From positions 2,359,001 to 2,423,000 of the forward strand of contig NC_011989.1 of the NCBI RefSeq assembly GCF_000016285.1: DNA of 64,000 nucleotides, read 5' to 3'. The notes below the pieces were generated by a model. The model was not told the DNA's origin. It was given only the letters and a program-made list of their open reading frames with translations, and did not search any database. The DNA is from Allorhizobium ampelinum S4 (GTDB lineage Bacteria > Pseudomonadota > Alphaproteobacteria > Rhizobiales > Rhizobiaceae). This document shows, piece by piece, positions 13,491-45,711 of the stretch; the first letter of the stretch is position 1; each line of letters opens with the position of its first letter. The translations under genes were made by a program, and so were the position numbers.

Positions 13491-13696
13491 TCACAACGTT
13501 CCTTTTCGACAAGAATGGTCAGCTGGAATAGGGCATGACAACGAGCACGCATCAATGGAAATCAACGCAGGATCACTCCTATTGATTTGCTCGTTTCGCA
13601 ATGATGTTCTAATCCACCCCTCATTCTTGGGAGGGAAAAGAAGATCCCGCCTGAAAACAGCCCACCCCAAGACATATGCCCATTTAGAGAATTTCC

Positions 13697-13782
13697 GCGT
13701 TTCATAGAAACGCATAAATACTCTAACTGTTTGTTTCAACACATTTCCGGACGCAAAACCGCACCGCACTTTTGCTGGAAAT
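13697..13782. repeat. Palindromic intergenic repeat upstream of azlC
   Basis: Two palindromes lie in the 308-base gap before azlC. The first is GCGTTTC-ATA-GAAACGC (13697-13713). The second is a two-part hairpin with ATTTCC/GGAAAT outside and GCAAAA/TTTTGC inside (13743-13782). The inner arms match those of the RIME1-like element at 22784, and I recall similar sequence as common between rhizobial genes. The rest of the gap holds nothing I recognise. The repeat ends 16 bases before azlC, so it lies in that gene's leader. Confidence 0.5.
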
Positions 13783-13798
13783 GCTCTAGGAAAAGACG

Positions 13799-15325: not shown

Positions 15326-15383
15326 ACATACAGAGCCGTGCGCCATATATGGCGCATAAAAGTTCGCTGTCGCTCTTTATATT

Positions 15384-15435
15384 TGCTGCATAATTTTCTC
15401 TTTAAACCGATCTCGGTTTAAAGAATTATGCAGCA
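15384..15435 (-). repeat. Large two-part hairpin across the pepP stop codon
   Basis: Outer arms TGCTGCATAATT and AATTATGCAGCA (12 bp, perfect) and inner arms TTTAAACCGA and TCGGTTTAAA (10 bp, perfect) form a nearly continuous stem with a small loop. The pepP stop codon (15426-15428) lies inside the outer arm. No T-run follows on the minus strand. It could be a 3'-end stabiliser or a dispersed palindrome. Confidence 0.6.
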
Positions 15436-17273
15436 GCGGACCGCGCCAGTGGCTCGGTTGCCCGGATCAGCCAGCTTCGGGCATCGTCACCCTCCACCAG
15501 CGGCAAAAGCTGCTCTCGTGTGCGGGCGTGGTAATCGTCCAGCCAGCGCAGCTCCTCACGTGTCAGCATGTCCTCAACGATCAGGTAGCGGTCGATGGGC
15601 GCGAAGGTCAGCGTCTCGAAACTCATCATATCAAGGTCGCCGCCGTTCACCGGCTCCAGATCGCGCACATAGATCAGGTTTTCGATCCGGATGCCAAAAT
15701 GACCGGGCCGGTAGTAACCAGGCTCATTGGAGAGAATCATGCCTGGCAGCAATTCCTGGGTGGAAAGCCGGGAAATCCGCTGCGGTCCCTCATGCACGGA
15801 CAGAAACGAGCCGACACCGTGGCCGGTGCCATGGGCGAAATCCGCCCCGGCCTTCCACAGGTTGATGCGTGCCAGCGGATCGAGATCGCAGCCGCGCGTG
15901 CCCTTGGGAAAACGCGCCGTGCTGATGGCGATCATGCCCTTCAACACCAGCGTGAAGAACCGTTTCTGATCGTCCGGCACCGCGCCGACCGCAAGCGTGC
16001 GGGTTATATCCGTGGTGCCGTTGACATATTGCGCGCCTGAATCGACCAGGAACATTTCGCCTGCCCGGATCGGCCGGTCGCTTTCCGTCGTTACGCGGTA
16101 ATGCATGATCGCGGCATGTTCGCCTGCCCCGGCAATCGTATCGAAGGACACATCCTTCAGCGGGTTCTGCATCCGCTCGCCCACTTTGGCCCGGATGGTT
16201 TCCAACGCCCGCGTCGCACTGATTTCCGTCGCGCTGCCCGCCGGTTGCCGGTCGAGCCAGCTGAGGAATTCGACCACGGCCACGCCGTCCTGTACATGGG
16301 CGACAGCCGAGCCATTCAGCTCAACCAGGTTTTTCACCGCCCGGCCAAGCTTGGCCGGATCGGCACCATCCACAACCTTGCCACCCCGGCTCGCCACCAG
16401 ACGCGCCAGTGCAGCGGGCGAGAGATCAGGGTCCATGAGAATACGGGCGCCGGTCTGGGCCAGCATTGCCAATTGCGACACGAAATTCTGCGGATCAAGC
16501 CGGGTGGCAAGACCATCGAGATAGGTCTCGACCTCAAGGTTCGTCTTGCGCCGGTCCAGAAACAGTTCGGCCTTGCCATCGGCATGAATGATCGCCCGCG
16601 ACAGCGGATGCGGCGTGTGAGGTACATCCTGGCCACGAATATTAAAGATCCAGGCCACCGACGATGGATCGGTGATCACCACCGCCGCTACGTCTTTTGC
16701 TGCGAGGCCATCGGCGATTTTGGCAATCTTCTCACCTGCCTCGACCCCGGCGGCCGAGATCGGCTGGATAGATACTGCGCCCAACGGCTCGGCAGGACGG
16801 TCGGTCCAGACAGCATCGAGCGGATTTTCATCGACCAGCACAATCGTGCCGCCGATCTCGTTCAGCGCCTTCTCCAGCCGCGACACCTGCGCCACCGTAT
16901 GCATCCATGGATCGATGCCCAAACGGAAGCTCTTCGGTGCATGTGCCGGGATCCACTTGGCTGGAGGCTCATCGATCAGGTCGCCCGGCGTAAACACGTC
17001 GAGATCCACCTGCTGGCGCACTTGCGTGACATAGCGGCCATCGACAAAGACCACGGCCTGGCTCTGCGTTACCAGAACTTCGCCCGCCGAGCCGGTAAAG
17101 CCGGTCAGCCAGGACAGGCGTTCGGCTGAGGCTGGAACATATTCGCCCTGATATTCATCGGCCCGCGGGATCAGAAAACCATCGATACCCAGCCCCGAAA
17201 ACCGGTCACGCAGCGCCGCGACACGGTCGCGACCGAATTGAGGAGTGGAGGTAACGTCAAAACTTTGGAACAT
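15426..17273 (-). CDS. pepP: Aminopeptidase P family protein (M24B, Xaa-Pro aminopeptidase)
   Basis: A metallopeptidase of 615 residues, the long three-domain form, which removes an N-terminal residue preceding proline. Two creatinase-like N-terminal domains (RADEYQGEYVPASAERLSWL near the start) precede the pita-bread catalytic domain. Metal ligands fit DSGAQYVNGTTDITRT, HGTGHGVG, HEGPQ and NEPGYYRPGHFGIRIENL. Cytosolic; no signal peptide. An incomplete ribosome site (AGG) lies before the ATG. The last residues RSAAA are encoded inside the hairpin at 15384-15435. Confidence 0.93.
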   Translation of the reverse strand: MFQSFDVTSTPQFGRDRVAALRDRFSGLGIDGFLIPRADEYQGEYVPASAERLSWLTGFTGSAGEVLVTQSQAVVFVDGRYVTQVRQQVDLDVFTPGDLIDEPPAKWIPAHAPKSFRLGIDPWMHTVAQVSRLEKALNEIGGTIVLVDENPLDAVWTDRPAEPLGAVSIQPISAAGVEAGEKIAKIADGLAAKDVAAVVITDPSSVAWIFNIRGQDVPHTPHPLSRAIIHADGKAELFLDRRKTNLEVETYLDGLATRLDPQNFVSQLAMLAQTGARILMDPDLSPAALARLVASRGGKVVDGADPAKLGRAVKNLVELNGSAVAHVQDGVAVVEFLSWLDRQPAGSATEISATRALETIRAKVGERMQNPLKDVSFDTIAGAGEHAAIMHYRVTTESDRPIRAGEMFLVDSGAQYVNGTTDITRTLAVGAVPDDQKRFFTLVLKGMIAISTARFPKGTRGCDLDPLARINLWKAGADFAHGTGHGVGSFLSVHEGPQRISRLSTQELLPGMILSNEPGYYRPGHFGIRIENLIYVRDLEPVNGGDLDMMSFETLTFAPIDRYLIVEDMLTREELRWLDDYHARTREQLLPLVEGDDARSWLIRATEPLARSAAA

Positions 17274-23252: not shown

Positions 23253-23336
23253 GTCAAACAAGGTTGTCACTTCACGAGATGCCGCACCGACTGGCAAACC
23301 TGTCTGCGCAGATGGAACAGACAACTCGGAGCTCAA

Positions 23337-23429
23337 CTTAAGAAAAGCGGGCTTGATTTTCGAGAGAGAGAACCGAGAACAAAACAATCGAGAGTGTGTC
23401 CGGTTCAATCTGAACTGGACACACTCTCG
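23337..23429 (+). repeat. Two-hairpin repeat, copy A
   Basis: First hairpin GAAAA/TTTTC (23342-23361), then an A-rich linker, then a 19-bp hairpin with arms at 23389-23407 and 23411-23429 around ATC. One pair is G-T, which holds as G-U only in plus-strand RNA. It aligns with copies B (34060) and C (43797). It begins about 85 bases after the stop of the 22908 gene. Confidence 0.65.
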
Positions 23430-33120: not shown

Positions 33121-34062
33121 ATGATGCAAGACCATTCACAAGTCGAAGCTATTCGCGCCTCATCACGCCAGCTGGTTCGTGAACTCGGCTTTATGGGAGG
33201 AGATTTTGCTGGAACGGATCTTCCGCCCTCGGCGGTGCATGCCTTGATAGAGATTGATGCGTGTCCTGATATCACCGCCCGCGACCTCGGCCATCGTCTT
33301 CGCCTTGAGAAGTCAAGCGTCAGCCGGATGCTCCGCAGGCTTATTTCATCGGGCGATCTGTTGGAAGAGGTGGATAAGGACGATTCCCGGATCAAGCGGT
33401 TGCGCTTGAGCGAGAATGGGCAGAAGCGAACCGAAACCATTCATGCGTTTGCGCGCCATCAGGTTTCAAATGCATTGAACCGATTGAGACCCCACGAAAA
33501 TCTCATGGTTCTTGATGGGCTTCGCCTGTATGTTCAGGCTCTTGCCAATCGGGGCGACGCGACCGCACCCGAAATTGAAATTGCCCAAGGCTACAGACCG
33601 GGTCTCATTGCCCGCATCACGCAGATGCATGCGCTCTACTATGCACGATTGGCAGGCTTCGGACTCCATTTCGAATGCGTTGTCGCAACTGGCCTCGCCG
33701 ACTTTTGCACTCGTCTGGGAAACTCGAAAAATTCCATCTGGCTTGCCATGCGAGCGGGTGAAATCGTCGGCTCCATCGCAATCGATGGCGAGGACCTGGG
33801 AGCCAAGACAGCCCATCTGCGATGGTTCATCATCGATGACGGCATGCGCGGTGGAGGCGTCGGGCGTCAATTGCTCTCCGCCGCCCTCGCCTTTGCGGAT
33901 GAGAAAGGCTTTGAAGAAACGCATCTTTGGACGTTCAGCGGCCTGACGGCGGCGCGACATCTTTACGAAAGCCACGGTTTTGCTTGCGTCGAGGAACGCA
34001 CTGGCAATCAGTGGGGAAGCGAAGTGCTGGAACAGAGATTTGTCAGGCCCCGGCCTTCCTAG
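33121..34062 (+). CDS. MarR-family regulator fused to a GNAT acetyltransferase
   Basis: A protein of 313 residues. About 1-145 is a MarR winged helix: ITARDLGHRLRLEKSSVSRMLRRLISSGDLLEEVDKDDSRIKRLRLSENGQ. About 165-313 is a GNAT domain with LRWFIIDDGMRGGGVGRQLLSAALAFA (CoA loop) and ARHLYESHGFACVEE. Such MarR-GNAT fusions are known in rhizobia; their effectors are mostly unknown. The ATG at 33121 is followed by another at 33124, and the ribosome site is weak. The palindrome at 33091 suggests autoregulation. The stop codon is the first part of repeat copy B. Confidence 0.88.
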   Translation: MMQDHSQVEAIRASSRQLVRELGFMGGDFAGTDLPPSAVHALIEIDACPDITARDLGHRLRLEKSSVSRMLRRLISSGDLLEEVDKDDSRIKRLRLSENGQKRTETIHAFARHQVSNALNRLRPHENLMVLDGLRLYVQALANRGDATAPEIEIAQGYRPGLIARITQMHALYYARLAGFGLHFECVVATGLADFCTRLGNSKNSIWLAMRAGEIVGSIAIDGEDLGAKTAHLRWFIIDDGMRGGGVGRQLLSAALAFADEKGFEETHLWTFSGLTAARHLYESHGFACVEERTGNQWGSEVLEQRFVRPRPS

Positions 34063-34160
34063 AGTTTGCCTTAGGAAAAGTGGAACCCGGTTTTCCCGAA
34101 AAGACAAACGAAAACAAAAAACGAGAGTCTGTCAGGTTTCATTTGAACCTGACAGACTTT
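34060..34160 (+). repeat. Two-hairpin repeat, copy B
   Basis: Begins at the TAG stop of the MarR-GNAT gene. First hairpin GGAAAA/TTTTCC (34074-34096), A-rich linker, then a perfect 13-bp hairpin (arms 34126-34138 and 34146-34158) followed by TTTG. About 80% or more identical to copy C over roughly 100 bases by eye alignment. Confidence 0.75.
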
Positions 34161-34234
34161 GTATACTGGCAGAGCAGGAATCGGCTTTGCATCCAGATCT
34201 GGATACCATCAGGGATGATAGACTTCCTTTCAGC

Positions 34235-42103: not shown

Positions 42104-42390
42104 ACGACAGATCCCGATTGCAGCGGTGCTTCTAGAAAGCCATCGCTTCCGCTAGGCGTTTTAGCCATAAAGATAACGATAGGGCAACGCAATGGTGATG
42201 TTTTAACGCATTTTTATGGCGTAACGCCACAATCTGCTGTTTTATTTTGGACAATAAGCATCGAGCAGAAACCCGGAATCAGCACGATGCGTAAGCTTTT
42301 TGCTTTCGTATCGGATTTATCCGAAAACCGGTTCTTAACTTTCGCTCCGATGCTGTAGCATCAGGTGAAATGCCCGAAACCGAACGCACG
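42104..42390. other. Intergenic region before bamD
   Basis: No gene seen. It holds a small CGGAT/ATCCG hairpin followed by AAAACCGG (about 42311-42331), wording common in rhizobial intergenic repeats. A perfect GATGCT-GT-AGCATC hairpin is at 42349-42362. The bamD promoter should be here but was not identified. Confidence 0.35.
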
Positions 42391-43438: not shown

Positions 43439-43745
43439 TCACATTCACCTTTCAAGTCTTCAAATCCGATCCGAGGCCGTGAAGGCTGGACTGGCTAGTC
43501 ATTTGCCCGTCCATGCCCTTGCGTAACCGCCGGGCCTCGTCGCTTCTGAAGCGCCACCCAACCACTCATCGGTCTGCCTGGCACTCTTCGTTATCAGGGA
43601 TATACGTTTGGAAACGCAACAATCCAAATCAATGTTTCTTTCCGATTGTTACGAAACCGAATCCTTGAAAAAACCTTGGAAAACTGTGGATTAACAGCAC
43701 TGTCTCAACAAGAAATCAGCATCTGAAACAGCCATTATAAAAACA
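43439..43745. other. Intergenic region before lpxC
   Basis: No gene seen. This part lies between the ftsZ terminator and lpxC and should hold the lpxC promoter. The stretch 43600-43700 is AT-rich (GGAAACGCAACAATCC, TTTCTTTCCGATTGTTACG). No clear -35/-10 pair or operator was found. Confidence 0.35.
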
Positions 43746-43773
43746 GAAACCCGGATCGTTCGATCCGGGTTTC
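43746..43773 (-). terminator. Rho-independent terminator of ftsZ
   Basis: GAAACCCGGATCG and CGATCCGGGTTTC pair perfectly around TT. On the minus strand TGTTTTTATAA follows. It lies about 125 bases after the ftsZ stop, beyond repeat copy C. Confidence 0.8.
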
Positions 43774-43796
43774 CAAAACGCATCTCTGGCGAGAGA

Positions 43797-43899
43797 CTCA
43801 GGGGCTGGCAGGTTCAAATTGAACCCGCCAGACACTGGATTTTTGTATCGTTTGTCTTTTCGGGAAAACCGGGCTCCACTTTCCCTAAGGCAAAATTTA
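43797..43899 (-). repeat. Two-hairpin repeat, copy C, at the ftsZ stop codon
   Basis: Begins at the TAA stop of ftsZ and reads leftwards. First hairpin GGGAAA/TTTCCC (43862-43885), A-rich linker, then a 12-bp hairpin (arms 43805-43816 and 43820-43831). One position is G-U in minus-strand RNA but A-C in plus-strand RNA, so the fold fits the ftsZ transcript. Confidence 0.75.
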
Positions 43900-45711
43900 G
43901 TTCGACTGGCGGCGCAAGAAGGCCGGAATTTCCAGCTGGTCGTCATCATGGGCCGCACGCTGCTGCGGCACCTGACGGCCCTGATCGTCCAGATTGCCAC
44001 GACGCGGTGCATAAAGGCTGGCTTCCGGCGACAGCGGGCGACGCTGCTGGGAGGCGGCGGCTGGCGCTGCTGCGGTCATATCGGAGGCAACATTGTCTTC
44101 CTGACGGCCGAGCGAGTTGGTGATGCGGCGCAGCAGCCCCATCGGTCCACGATCCTCGGACGCCTGCTGAGCGGCAGGCTGATTGCGGTGATCAAGCTCG
44201 GCCTGCACGACCGGTGAGAAATCCTCGACCTTCGGCATGCGGGACTGTTCTGGCTGGCGCATGACCGGCGCGGCAGGTTCCTGGCGCATGACAGGAGCAA
44301 CCGGCTCCTGGCGGAAGGTTGGCTGTGGCGCAGCAGCAGGCTGCATGGCAGGCGCTGGTTGCGGTGCACGGGCAACCGGCTGTTCCGGAGCGGCAAACGA
44401 GGAAAATAGCTTGCTCTGCGGACGGAAATCGTCAGCAGGCTGGGCGGCAGCAGGCTGCTGCACCTCAGGCTGGGCATGCATGGCGGCCTGACGGGCGACA
44501 GCGATTTCCAGTTCGCGTTCCATTTCAGCTTCAGCATTGCGGATCTGCTCGGCGACCGGATCAAGTGGGCGCGTTGCAAAGATCGACGGAGCTGCGGCAA
44601 CCGGAGCTGGTGCCGGAGCAGCTGCAACAGGTGCTGGCTGAGGCGCAGGAGCGGCAGGAGCAGGCGTAAAGGCAGCGGAAGGACGAATCGCTGGCTTGGC
44701 AGAGATCGTGCGCATTTCAGCACCGCGTGCTTCCAGCGCATTGGCGGCGCGGTCGATGCCGGTGGCAACGACCGACACGCGGATCAGGCCTTCCAGCGCT
44801 TCATCGAAGGTGGCGCCGAGGATGATGTTGGCGTCGGCATCGACTTCTTCGCGGATACGGGTTGCGGCTTCGTCGACTTCGAACAGCGTCAGGTCGCGAC
44901 CACCAGTGATAGAGATCAGCAGGCCCTGCGCGCCCTTCATCGAGGTTTCGTCGAGCAGCGGGTTAGCAATGGCGGCTTCGGCAGCCTGAAGCGCACGACC
45001 TGGGCCGGAAGCCTCGCCGGTACCCATCATGGCGCGGCCCATCTCACGCATCACCGAGCGAACGTCGGCGAAGTCGAGATTGATCAGGCCTTCCTTGACC
45101 ATCAGGTCGGTGATGCAGGCAACACCGGAATAGAGAACCTGGTCGGCCATCGCGAAAGCGTCAGCAAAGGTCGTCCGATCGTTGGCAATGCGGAACAGGT
45201 TCTGGTTCGGGATAACGATCAGCGTATCAACCGACTTCTGCAGCGCATCGATACCGGCTTCAGCCAGACGCATGCGGCGCGCGCCTTCGAAATGGAAGGG
45301 CTTGGTGACGACGCCGACCGTCAGGATGCCTTTATTGCGGGCAGCCTGGGCAACGACGGGAGCCGCACCGGTACCGGTGCCGCCGCCCATGCCAGCGGTG
45401 ACAAAGCACATATGGGTGCCGTTCAGGTGATCGATGATCTCATCAATGCATTCTTCGGCAGCAGCGCGGCCGACTTCCGGCTGCGAACCGGCGCCGAGAC
45501 CCTCGGTGACATTGGCGCCGAGCTGGATGATCCGCTCTGCCTTGGTCATGGTCAGGGCCTGGGCATCGGTGTTGGCAACAACGAAATCCACCCCCTGAAG
45601 ACCAGCGGTGATCATGTTATTGACGGCATTGCCGCCGCCGCCGCCGACGCCGAACACGGTGATGCGCGGCTTGAGTTCGGTAATATCCGGCTTGTTCAGA
45701 TTGATGGTCAT
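43897..45711 (-). CDS. ftsZ: Cell division protein FtsZ
   Basis: A tubulin-like GTPase of 604 residues that forms the Z-ring at midcell. N-terminal [14 protein letters not shown] and the GTP signature GGGTGTG (109-115) are followed by the T7-loop region [13 protein letters not shown]. The globular part ends near residue 325. A Pro/Ala/Gln-rich linker of about 250 residues follows, with near-repeats such as RQEPVAPVM and RQEPAAPVM. The end [12 protein letters not shown] is the conserved peptide that binds FtsA. The linker is far longer than in E. coli but normal for rhizobial FtsZ1. [10 protein letters not shown] at 45711 is preferred (AGGA upstream) over the frame open to 45756. It lies 102 bases after ftsA. 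Confidence 0.97.

What the first reader, a model, noticed from the sequence alone, without database searches (positions are those of the whole stretch)
34060..34160. Two-hairpin RNA repeat attached to stop codons of unrelated genes
Copy B starts at the MarR-GNAT stop (TAGAGTTTGCCTTAGG) and copy C at the ftsZ stop (TAAATTTTGCCTTAGG), both in sense orientation. Within the second hairpin one pair is U-A in A and B but G-C in C, and another is A-U in B, C-G in A and G-U in C. The wobbles in A and C would be mismatches in antisense RNA. Position, strand and compensatory change together point to a dispersed 3'-UTR RNA element acting in the transcript. I cannot tell whether it has been described.
Basis: seen in the sequence. 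Interest (0 to 1): 0.7.

Follow-up and report, generated by a model that had tools for sequence, protein, structure and literature searches.

The report
Hairpin-pair mobile repeat on stop codons

Summary
Copies B (34058-34162 +) and C (43901-43798 -) begin at the MarR-GNAT and ftsZ stop codons; copy A is 23325-23429 (+). A covariance model finds 112 matches (100 non-overlapping) in the window plus 80 further stretches of the same genome. Pairing covaries strongly, but one-sided changes do not favour G-U over A-C (66 v 58).

Best reading: a non-autonomous mobile repeat, about 99 bp between TA dinucleotides, of the Rhizobiales two-palindrome kind (RIME, Bru-RS). Evidence: sharp YTA...TAR ends; uneven copy number among congeners; strains lacking single copies, one showing a native TAA stop where our genome reads TAG plus element. 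A sister repeat, of RIME1 type, sits in the element's own border with an exact TA duplication. YTAR is 6.6 times denser between predicted genes than in them.

Unexplained: stop codons are hit three times more often than YTAR supply predicts, nearly always with the element in sense (15 v 3 of 80). By sequence it is not RIME1. No transposase was found.

The parts
34060..34162 (+). copy B of the repeat, from the TA at the MarR-GNAT stop (TAG 34060-34062) to its 3' end
   Evidence: R1 match 34058-34162, 95.3 bits; sequence
34064..34109 (+). copy B hairpin 1 (GTTTGCC...GACAAAC; GAAAA on the 3' side)
   Evidence: fold
34124..34160 (+). copy B hairpin 2 (16 pairs); read on the - strand it is followed by CTCGTTTTTT and scans as terminator-like
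   Evidence: fold; scan, (1 site found, 0.5 expected in shuffles)
33121..34062 (+). MarR-GNAT gene whose stop codon is the first three bases of copy B
   Evidence: gene prediction; Pfam
43798..43901 (-). copy C of the repeat, directly at the ftsZ stop TAA (43899-43897)
   Evidence: R1 match 84.4 bits; sequence
43851..43894 (-). copy C hairpin 1
   Evidence: fold
43800..43837 (-). copy C hairpin 2
   Evidence: fold
43897..45711 (-). ftsZ
   Evidence: gene prediction; Pfam
43744..43775 (-). terminator-like hairpin (14 pairs, then TTTTT) after copy C; similar CCCGGG-type hairpins follow ftsZ in printed relatives without the element
   Evidence: scan (1 site found, 0.7 expected in shuffles); relatives' 3' ends read by eye
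23325..23429 (+). copy A: hairpin 1 decayed, hairpin 2 (23389-23429) intact
   Evidence: R1 match 55.5 bits; fold
13684..13790 (-). weak match; same design with other arms (TAGAGCATTTCC)
   Evidence: 36.6 bits; sequence
42255..42359 (-). weak match; same design with other arms (TACAGCATCGGA)
   Evidence: 35.6 bits; sequence

Best explanation
The repeat is a two-hairpin DNA element of about 99 bp lying between TA dinucleotides, present in dozens of near-identical to decayed copies in this genome, and is likely a non-autonomous mobile element that would insert at YTAR sites with duplication of the TA, so that it could enter TAA or TAG stop codons and hand the gene a new TAG. Shown: its ends, its copy number, the absence of individual copies from the same site in close relatives, one case where a relative's TAA stop stands exactly where our genome has TAG plus the element, and, for a sister repeat of RIME1 type, an insertion at a YTAR site with an exact TA duplication. 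Inferred: a transposase acting in trans on the imperfect terminal repeats (GAGTTTGTCAGG / GAGTCTGTCAGG), perhaps of the IS427 type, which uses the same YTAR rule; the TA duplication for this family; and that copies between a stop codon and a terminator (as at ftsZ) are transcribed as 3'-UTR passengers. Selection against insertion in coding sequence and promoters would then leave the copies at gene ends. Covariation inside hairpin 2 would reflect upkeep of a DNA palindrome needed for movement, or repair of imperfect palindromes, as readily as RNA selection.
For: Sharp ends: of the 45 best copies Y precedes the 5' TA position in 40 and R follows the 3' TA position in 44, with flanks near random beyond. 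Copies absent from a relative at 4 of 9 loci looked at: L108 absent from G340 (97% identical flank) and G012, with lengths that fit one 2-bp site; L085 absent from strain VAR03-1, whose gene ends CCTTAA where ours reads CCTTAG+element; L128 absent from VAT03-9 and L129 from T60/94. Next to L129 a RIME1-type repeat of our genome is absent from VAT03-9 (99% identical): CTC-TA-AGC there, CTC-TA-[repeat]-TA-AGC here, so an exact TA duplication at the CTAA formed by our element's own border. An IS427-type insertion sequence also sits exactly at the border TA of a partial copy in L310, and IS427-type copies lie between YTA and TAR. Copy numbers in the genus: 93, 86, 62, 61, 58 matches in five genomes, 0-4 in the other ten (at most 150 candidates scored per genome, one of the five 66% complete, G007 only weak matches). 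YTAR is 1.0 per kb in predicted genes and 6.9 per kb between them. Divergent gaps are depleted, 6 of 99 gaps with a copy v 68 of 367 without; convergent gaps enriched, 29 of 99 v 43 of 367. MarR-GNAT relatives L350, L351, L352 (61-64% identical) have no element and end in TAG. No strand preference in one-sided pair changes. Same design as RIME1 and Rfam BASRCI27.
Against: No transposase with matching ends: neither the IS630-type (7 of 14 PF13358 loci checked) nor the IS427-type elements (15 of 15 PF13340 loci) share them. For this family the TA duplication is inferred: at L108 the relatives read CA or CC for TA, at L129 the lengths differ by one base, at L128 the copy's ends have decayed, at L085 the 3' half is lost; only 25 of 58 copies keep TA at both ends. 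At 5 of 9 loci no clean empty site was seen. Stop codons are hit more often (18 of 80, expected 5.7) than YTAR supply predicts and nearly always in one orientation (15 v 3), which insertion chemistry alone does not explain.
Confidence: 0.78

Rival explanations
1. A dispersed 3'-UTR RNA element: the sense two-hairpin RNA right after the stop codon protects mRNA or tunes translation termination, and copies are kept for that.
For: Excess of copies with the stop codon at the 5' edge in sense (15 v 3 of 80; expected 2.9 each); decayed copies that keep mainly hairpin 1 at a stop, e.g. L085, L089 and ftsZ of G012; strong covariation; hairpin-2 one-sided changes lean to G-U (28 v 14, p=0.044 in the best 43; 39 v 23, p=0.056 in 58; 67 v 51, p=0.17 in 100); the sense strand folds 2.6 kcal/mol more stably on average over 58 copies.
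Against: 62 of 80 copies are not at stop codons, and tandem orientation is even there (22 v 19); hairpin-1 changes lean the other way (13 v 25, 27 v 35, 52 v 69); ftsZ carries the element in 4 of 30 genomes of the genus, own included; the copies share one ancestor, so the fold difference is a property of the consensus; searches resting on hairpin 1 inflate the 5'-edge count among decayed copies.
Confidence: 0.11
2. A transcription terminator or attenuator that spread as a useful gene end: in antisense, hairpin 2 is followed by a T-rich stretch (ATTCTCTTGTTTTCGTTTGTCTTTT).
For: The scan calls the antisense hairpin 2 of copy B terminator-like (0.5 sites expected in shuffles); convergent gaps enriched.
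Against: Only one orientation has the T-rich stretch, yet orientation is balanced away from stops; copy C sits between ftsZ and a separate terminator-like hairpin, and printed relatives without the element keep such a hairpin (by eye).
Confidence: 0.07
3. A chromosomal DNA-binding or methylation repeat like the Caulobacter CIR (GANTC) elements.
For: Two arms and a linker with TA at the ends, as described for CIR (PMC2229807 passages); GANTC occurs in the hairpin-2 half of 41 of 58 copies.
Against: No GANTC in the loop in any of the 36 copies (of 58) whose hairpin-2 loop the pattern recognised; 17 of 58 lack GANTC in the hairpin-2 half altogether.
Confidence: 0.04

Closest known systems
RIME1 (Rhizobium-specific intergenic mosaic element; Osteras, Stanley and Finan 1995; paper not held, content recalled)
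   Same: About 105-115 nt, two palindromes joined by a linker, TA at both ends, intergenic, Rhizobiaceae; a copy of our family even sits in the chvI-chvG gap (L066:3001-3098), the place where I recall RIME1 was defined (genes named from sequence and the neighbouring pckA).
   Different: No sequence match (longest shared word with the RIME1-type copies 7 bases); arms CTGCAT/ATGCAG and ACAGCG/CGCTGT instead of GTTTGTC/GACAAAC and GAGTCTGTC/GACAGACTC. RIME1-type copies exist beside it in the same genome.
Bru-RS1/Bru-RS2 of Brucella (103 and 106 bp) and Rfam RF02600 BASRCI27
   Same: Size and palindromic repeat nature of Bru-RS (passages of PMC10800456 and PMC2267715); a YTAR-using IS (IS711) prefers Bru-RS (PMC2266754 passages), as an IS427-type element sits on our repeat's border; the BASRCI27 model aligns end to end over both hairpins (22.1 bits, E 0.012).
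   Different: Below the Rfam gathering score (59.8); arms differ (GCATGTC). Bru-RS sequences themselves were not compared; that BASRCI27 is a Bru-RS copy is my inference.
Mosaic element in Aureimonas altamirensis (L201, chvI-chvG gap)
   Same: Hairpin 1 of our design (GGAAAGTGGGATCCGGTTTTC)
   Different: Hairpin 2 is of the RIME1 type (CGACCTTTGTGCG...CGCACGG), so halves appear exchangeable.
CIR elements; Correia, RUP and ERIC repeats (MITE-like)
   Same: TA at the ends; for Correia, ERIC and RUP a target duplication (table in PMC2229807)
   Different: CIR is described with GANTC at a loop; the others as folding end to end rather than as two arms.

Membership tests
RIME1 | about 108 bp with two large palindromes (recalled) | tested here: met
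   99 bp between TA ends, two hairpins
RIME1 | RIME1 sequence, taken from chvI-chvG gaps of the Sinorhizobium genus | tested here: not met
   RIME1-type sequence read in such gaps, two copies in L268; no match of our element beyond 7 bases. The label rests on the recalled abstract
RIME1 | intergenic, Rhizobiaceae, multicopy | tested here: met
Bru-RS / RF02600 | score above the Rfam gathering threshold of RF02600 | tested here: not met
   22.1 v 59.8 bits
Bru-RS / RF02600 | Bru-RS sequence | not tested
   no Bru-RS reference sequence was fetched
CIR | GANTC in the loop of one arm | tested here: not met
   0 of 36 recognised hairpin-2 loops; hairpin-1 loop not counted
MITE-like non-autonomous element | terminal inverted repeats | tested here: met
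   GAGTTTGTCAGG v GAGTCTGTCAGG, 11 of 12 (sequence)
MITE-like non-autonomous element | target-site duplication | tested here: inconclusive
   TA fits at L108 by length, not clean at three other loci; exact only for the sister RIME1-type repeat
MITE-like non-autonomous element | empty sites in relatives | tested here: met
   4 of 9 loci
MITE-like non-autonomous element | autonomous partner with the same ends | tested here: inconclusive
   none among 7 of 14 IS630-type and 15 of 15 IS427-type loci of this genome; other IS families not tested
3'-UTR RNA element | strand-specific pairing (G-U over A-C) | tested here: not met
   66 v 58 in 58 copies, 119 v 120 in 100

The most novel reading that the evidence does not exclude
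A mobile repeat that has been turned into a gene-end module: it enters TAA/TAG stop codons, replaces the stop codon with its own TAG, and is kept there preferentially in the orientation that places hairpin 1 just behind the terminating ribosome, so that unrelated genes such as ftsZ acquire the same 3'-UTR structure, with interchangeable halves drawn from a Rhizobiales-wide set of two-hairpin elements.
Probability: 0.2. Interest if true: 0.65.

Novelty: new variant of a known kind. Interest (0 to 1): 0.45.

Why it matters
Rhizobial palindromic repeats were described in 2008 as intergenic sequences of unknown function (PMC2573895 passage). Empty sites, the YTAR end rule, an exact TA duplication for a RIME1-type copy and the stop-codon swap make their movement testable, tie RIME1 and a Brucella 'sRNA' family to one design, and warn that strong covariation next to a stop codon can be the mark of a mobile palindrome rather than of an RNA regulator.

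Tried and rejected
RIME1 itself was my first guess and failed on sequence: plasmid records gave 28 hits to our element, 12 of them A. vitis and none S. meliloti, although S. meliloti plasmids are rich in another such repeat (28 places on pSymB), and Sinorhizobium chvI-chvG gaps hold a different sequence. Rfam at gathering score: nothing in the whole window. IS630- and IS427-type partners: no shared ends. R1 over 80 named chvI loci gave 18 weak matches, best 44.5 bits. G011/G012 contexts gave 10 at the 5' edge v 3 at the 3' edge among 42 matches, but G012 copies are partly the same insertions as ours and were not pooled. Of the nine loci compared with relatives, L120 and L095 were filled in the full-length records listed (9 and 5), L127 filled in VAT03-9 and VAR03-1, L131 filled in three records with hairpin-1 remnants in the two others aligned, L070 has lost hairpin 1 in VAR03-1; not every record was opened. 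Gene positions come from my own codon model, not from annotation, and the sampled DNA was chosen around copies. L354 and L355 (MarR-GNAT) could not be read reliably; nor could the ftsZ end of L346, and L331 is cut short. No paper on this family showed up; most subscription papers are not held. Papers: passages only of PMC2573895, PMC2245857, PMC2873474, PMC2780559, PMC2267715, PMC10800456, PMC2266754, PMC9751625, PMC2229807; of PMC1273637 a reference line; PMC10969869 held none of the terms; Osteras 1995 is recalled (not held).

Full report
What is there. Copy B starts with the TAG stop of the MarR-GNAT gene and runs 34060-34162 (+); copy C starts at the TAA of ftsZ and runs 43899-43798 (-); copy A is 23325-23429 (+) with hairpin 1 decayed. 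Two weak matches in the window (13684-13790 -, 42255-42359 -) have the same design with other arms. The window is 2359001-2423000 of the 3.73-Mb contig of a 6.32-Mb genome. From the contig sizes I recall this as the grapevine strain Agrobacterium (Allorhizobium) vitis S4; no call names it, but the closest plasmid records are A. vitis. 'S4' below rests on that recall.

Copies. A first search scored 40 of 135 candidates and listed 61 matches, 40 of them in the main orientation over most or half of the query. A covariance model from 29 of them gave 127 matches at E<=0.01 in the genome, 150 of 2485 candidates scored. Over the window and 80 stretches (698 kb) it gave 112 matches at E<=1e-4, 100 after removing overlaps, and 62 at E<=1e-9 in 56 of those sources. 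The element reads YTA-GAGTTTGTCAGGGAAAAGTGG...CCGGTTTTCCC-GAAAA-GACAAAC-GAAAACAAGAGAA-C(T/G)AGAGTCTGTCTGGTTCA...TGAACCTGACAGACTC-TAR: hairpin 1 with a 3' bulge, an A-rich linker, and hairpin 2.

Covariation and strand. On 62 aligned copies 91.4% of cells pair, 27 of 32 pairs show two-sided changes in 93 cells, and none of 500 shuffles reaches these values (the alignment was fitted to the structure, which leans towards it, and related copies can beat the shuffles without structure). All 18 pairs of hairpin 2 vary on both sides. One-sided transitions, G-U v A-C: hairpin 1 13 v 25, 27 v 35, 52 v 69; hairpin 2 28 v 14, 39 v 23, 67 v 51, for the best 43, the best 58 and all 100 copies. Summed for 58 copies that is 66 v 58 (p=0.53). 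A sense-strand RNA constraint should favour G-U in both hairpins; only hairpin 2 leans so.

Placement. Of 100 copies 37 lie in tandem gaps in sense, 27 in tandem gaps in antisense, 30 between converging and 6 between diverging genes. Gaps with a copy are less often divergent (6 of 99 v 68 of 367) and more often convergent (29 of 99 v 43 of 367) than gaps without. Of the 80 best, 15 have a stop codon at the 5' edge (within -4 to +3 bases; L131 has one at both edges), 3 at the 3' edge only and 62 at neither. From the supply of YTAR sites (66 at stops, 854 in gaps) 5.7 stop hits would be expected, 2.9 per orientation. The 3' count fits chance; the 5' count does not. With L131 counted on both sides it is 12 v 3 among the 60 best (p=0.035), 8 v 3 among the 40 best (p=0.23) and 22 v 4 among all 100. 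In G011 it is 5 v 2 of 20. Because the search leans on hairpin 1, remnants with hairpin 1 are over-represented, so the bias among decayed copies is less certain.

Mobility. Nine loci were compared with relatives. At L108 the chromosome of G340 reads CGGCGGCCCAGGCCACC where S4 has CGGCGGCC-TA-[element]-TA-AGCCACC; lengths fit one 2-bp site. At L085 strain VAR03-1 reads AACACGCCTTAACCTCTGACGC where S4 reads AACACGCCTTAG followed by hairpin 1: the gene's TAA stands as TAG, as if the element had entered the TTAA (loss in VAR03-1 is not excluded). L128 is empty in VAT03-9 and L129 in T60/94. L070 has lost hairpin 1 in VAR03-1. The other four loci showed no clean empty site. Beside L129 lies a sharper case for the kind as a whole: VAT03-9 (99.0% identical, 105 bp shorter) reads ...AAACTC-TA-AGCGCCG, S4 reads ...AAACTC-TA-[CAGCGCCG...TTATGCAG]-TA-AGCGCCG, a RIME1-type repeat inserted in the CTAA at the border of our element with an exact TA duplication. 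In L310 an IS427-type IS sits at the border TA of a partial copy, as IS711, reported to use YTAR, prefers Bru-RS (PMC2266754 passages).

Relatives at the two window genes. At ftsZ 4 of 30 genomes of the genus, own included, carry the element: at the TAA in own, G012 (hairpin 1 only) and G354, about 15 nt behind it in G340; G011, 96% identical in FtsZ, ends in TGA without it. At MarR-GNAT, 9 of 30 genomes have the gene; own and G340 carry hairpin 1, G012 keeps only hairpin 2 after TAG (by eye), L350-L352 end in TAG and L353 in TAA without the element. Matches per genome in the genus were 93, 86, 62, 61, 58 in five and 0-4 in ten; in ten genomes of other families 0-3, except G016 with 64 weak ones (best E 4e-10).

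Kind. RIME1-type sequence stands in several chvI-chvG gaps of the Sinorhizobium genus, twice in L268, as I recall being reported for strain NGR234. It does not match our element, although our own genome has a copy of our element in that gap and RIME1-type copies elsewhere, one in the window (15328-15436 -). Aureimonas L201 joins a hairpin 1 of our design to a hairpin 2 of RIME1 type. Rfam's BASRCI27 aligns over both hairpins below threshold. So the family is a new sequence variant of the two-palindrome repeats, which papers list as repeats.

Mechanism. Shown: ends, empty sites, the stop difference at one locus, YTAR-rich gaps, an exact TA duplication for the RIME1-type sister. Inferred: transposase in trans, TA duplication for this family, transcription of gene-end copies. 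At ftsZ a terminator-like hairpin lies beyond the element and printed relatives without the element keep such a hairpin, which fits a passenger in the 3' UTR. Why stop-codon copies are nearly all in sense is open: in antisense the stop codon would lie inside the foot of hairpin 2, which may be selected against (inference).

Noticed in passing
L129:4100-4206, against L396 (strain VAT03-9): A RIME1-type repeat inserted at the CTAA formed by the border of an element copy, with exact TA duplication; absent from the 99%-identical strain VAT03-9.
   Followed up: partly
window 15328-15436 (-): A RIME1-type copy (85% to the one at L108:3271-3386, 75% to a Sinorhizobium chvI-chvG copy); 11-12 such places in the 698 kb held.
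   Followed up: partly
L310 (IS427-type transposase, PF13340): An IS whose end GGATGTGTGGAC starts right after the border TA of a partial element copy, recalling IS711 in Bru-RS.
   Followed up: partly
L201:10736-10842: Aureimonas altamirensis chvI-chvG gap holds a mosaic element: hairpin 1 of the window's design plus a RIME1-type hairpin 2.
   Followed up: partly
Rfam RF02600 (BASRCI27), via window 34052-34208: A Brucella sRNA family that may be one copy of a two-palindrome repeat rather than a single-locus sRNA; L181 (Brucella tritici) carries a GCATGTC-armed hairpin 1.
   Followed up: partly
L236:30043-30160 (S. meliloti pSymB): Another two-palindrome repeat sharing 9-base words with ours, 28 places on pSymB; possibly RIME2.
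   Followed up: partly
L348 (G012 MarR-GNAT) and L070 v VAR03-1: Loss of hairpin 1 leaving hairpin 2, apparently between the direct repeats TAGAGTTTG and TAGAGTCTG.
   Followed up: no
plasmid records NZ_CP084753.1 and NZ_CP084754.1: Records labelled Roseateles sp. XES5 carry 19 and 17 places matching this Rhizobiaceae element, so the label or the sample may be wrong.
   Followed up: no
L320, L321: ftsZ of G354 (87% identical FtsZ) has the element at the same TAA although the nearer G011 lacks it: old copy lost, or the same site hit twice.
   Followed up: no
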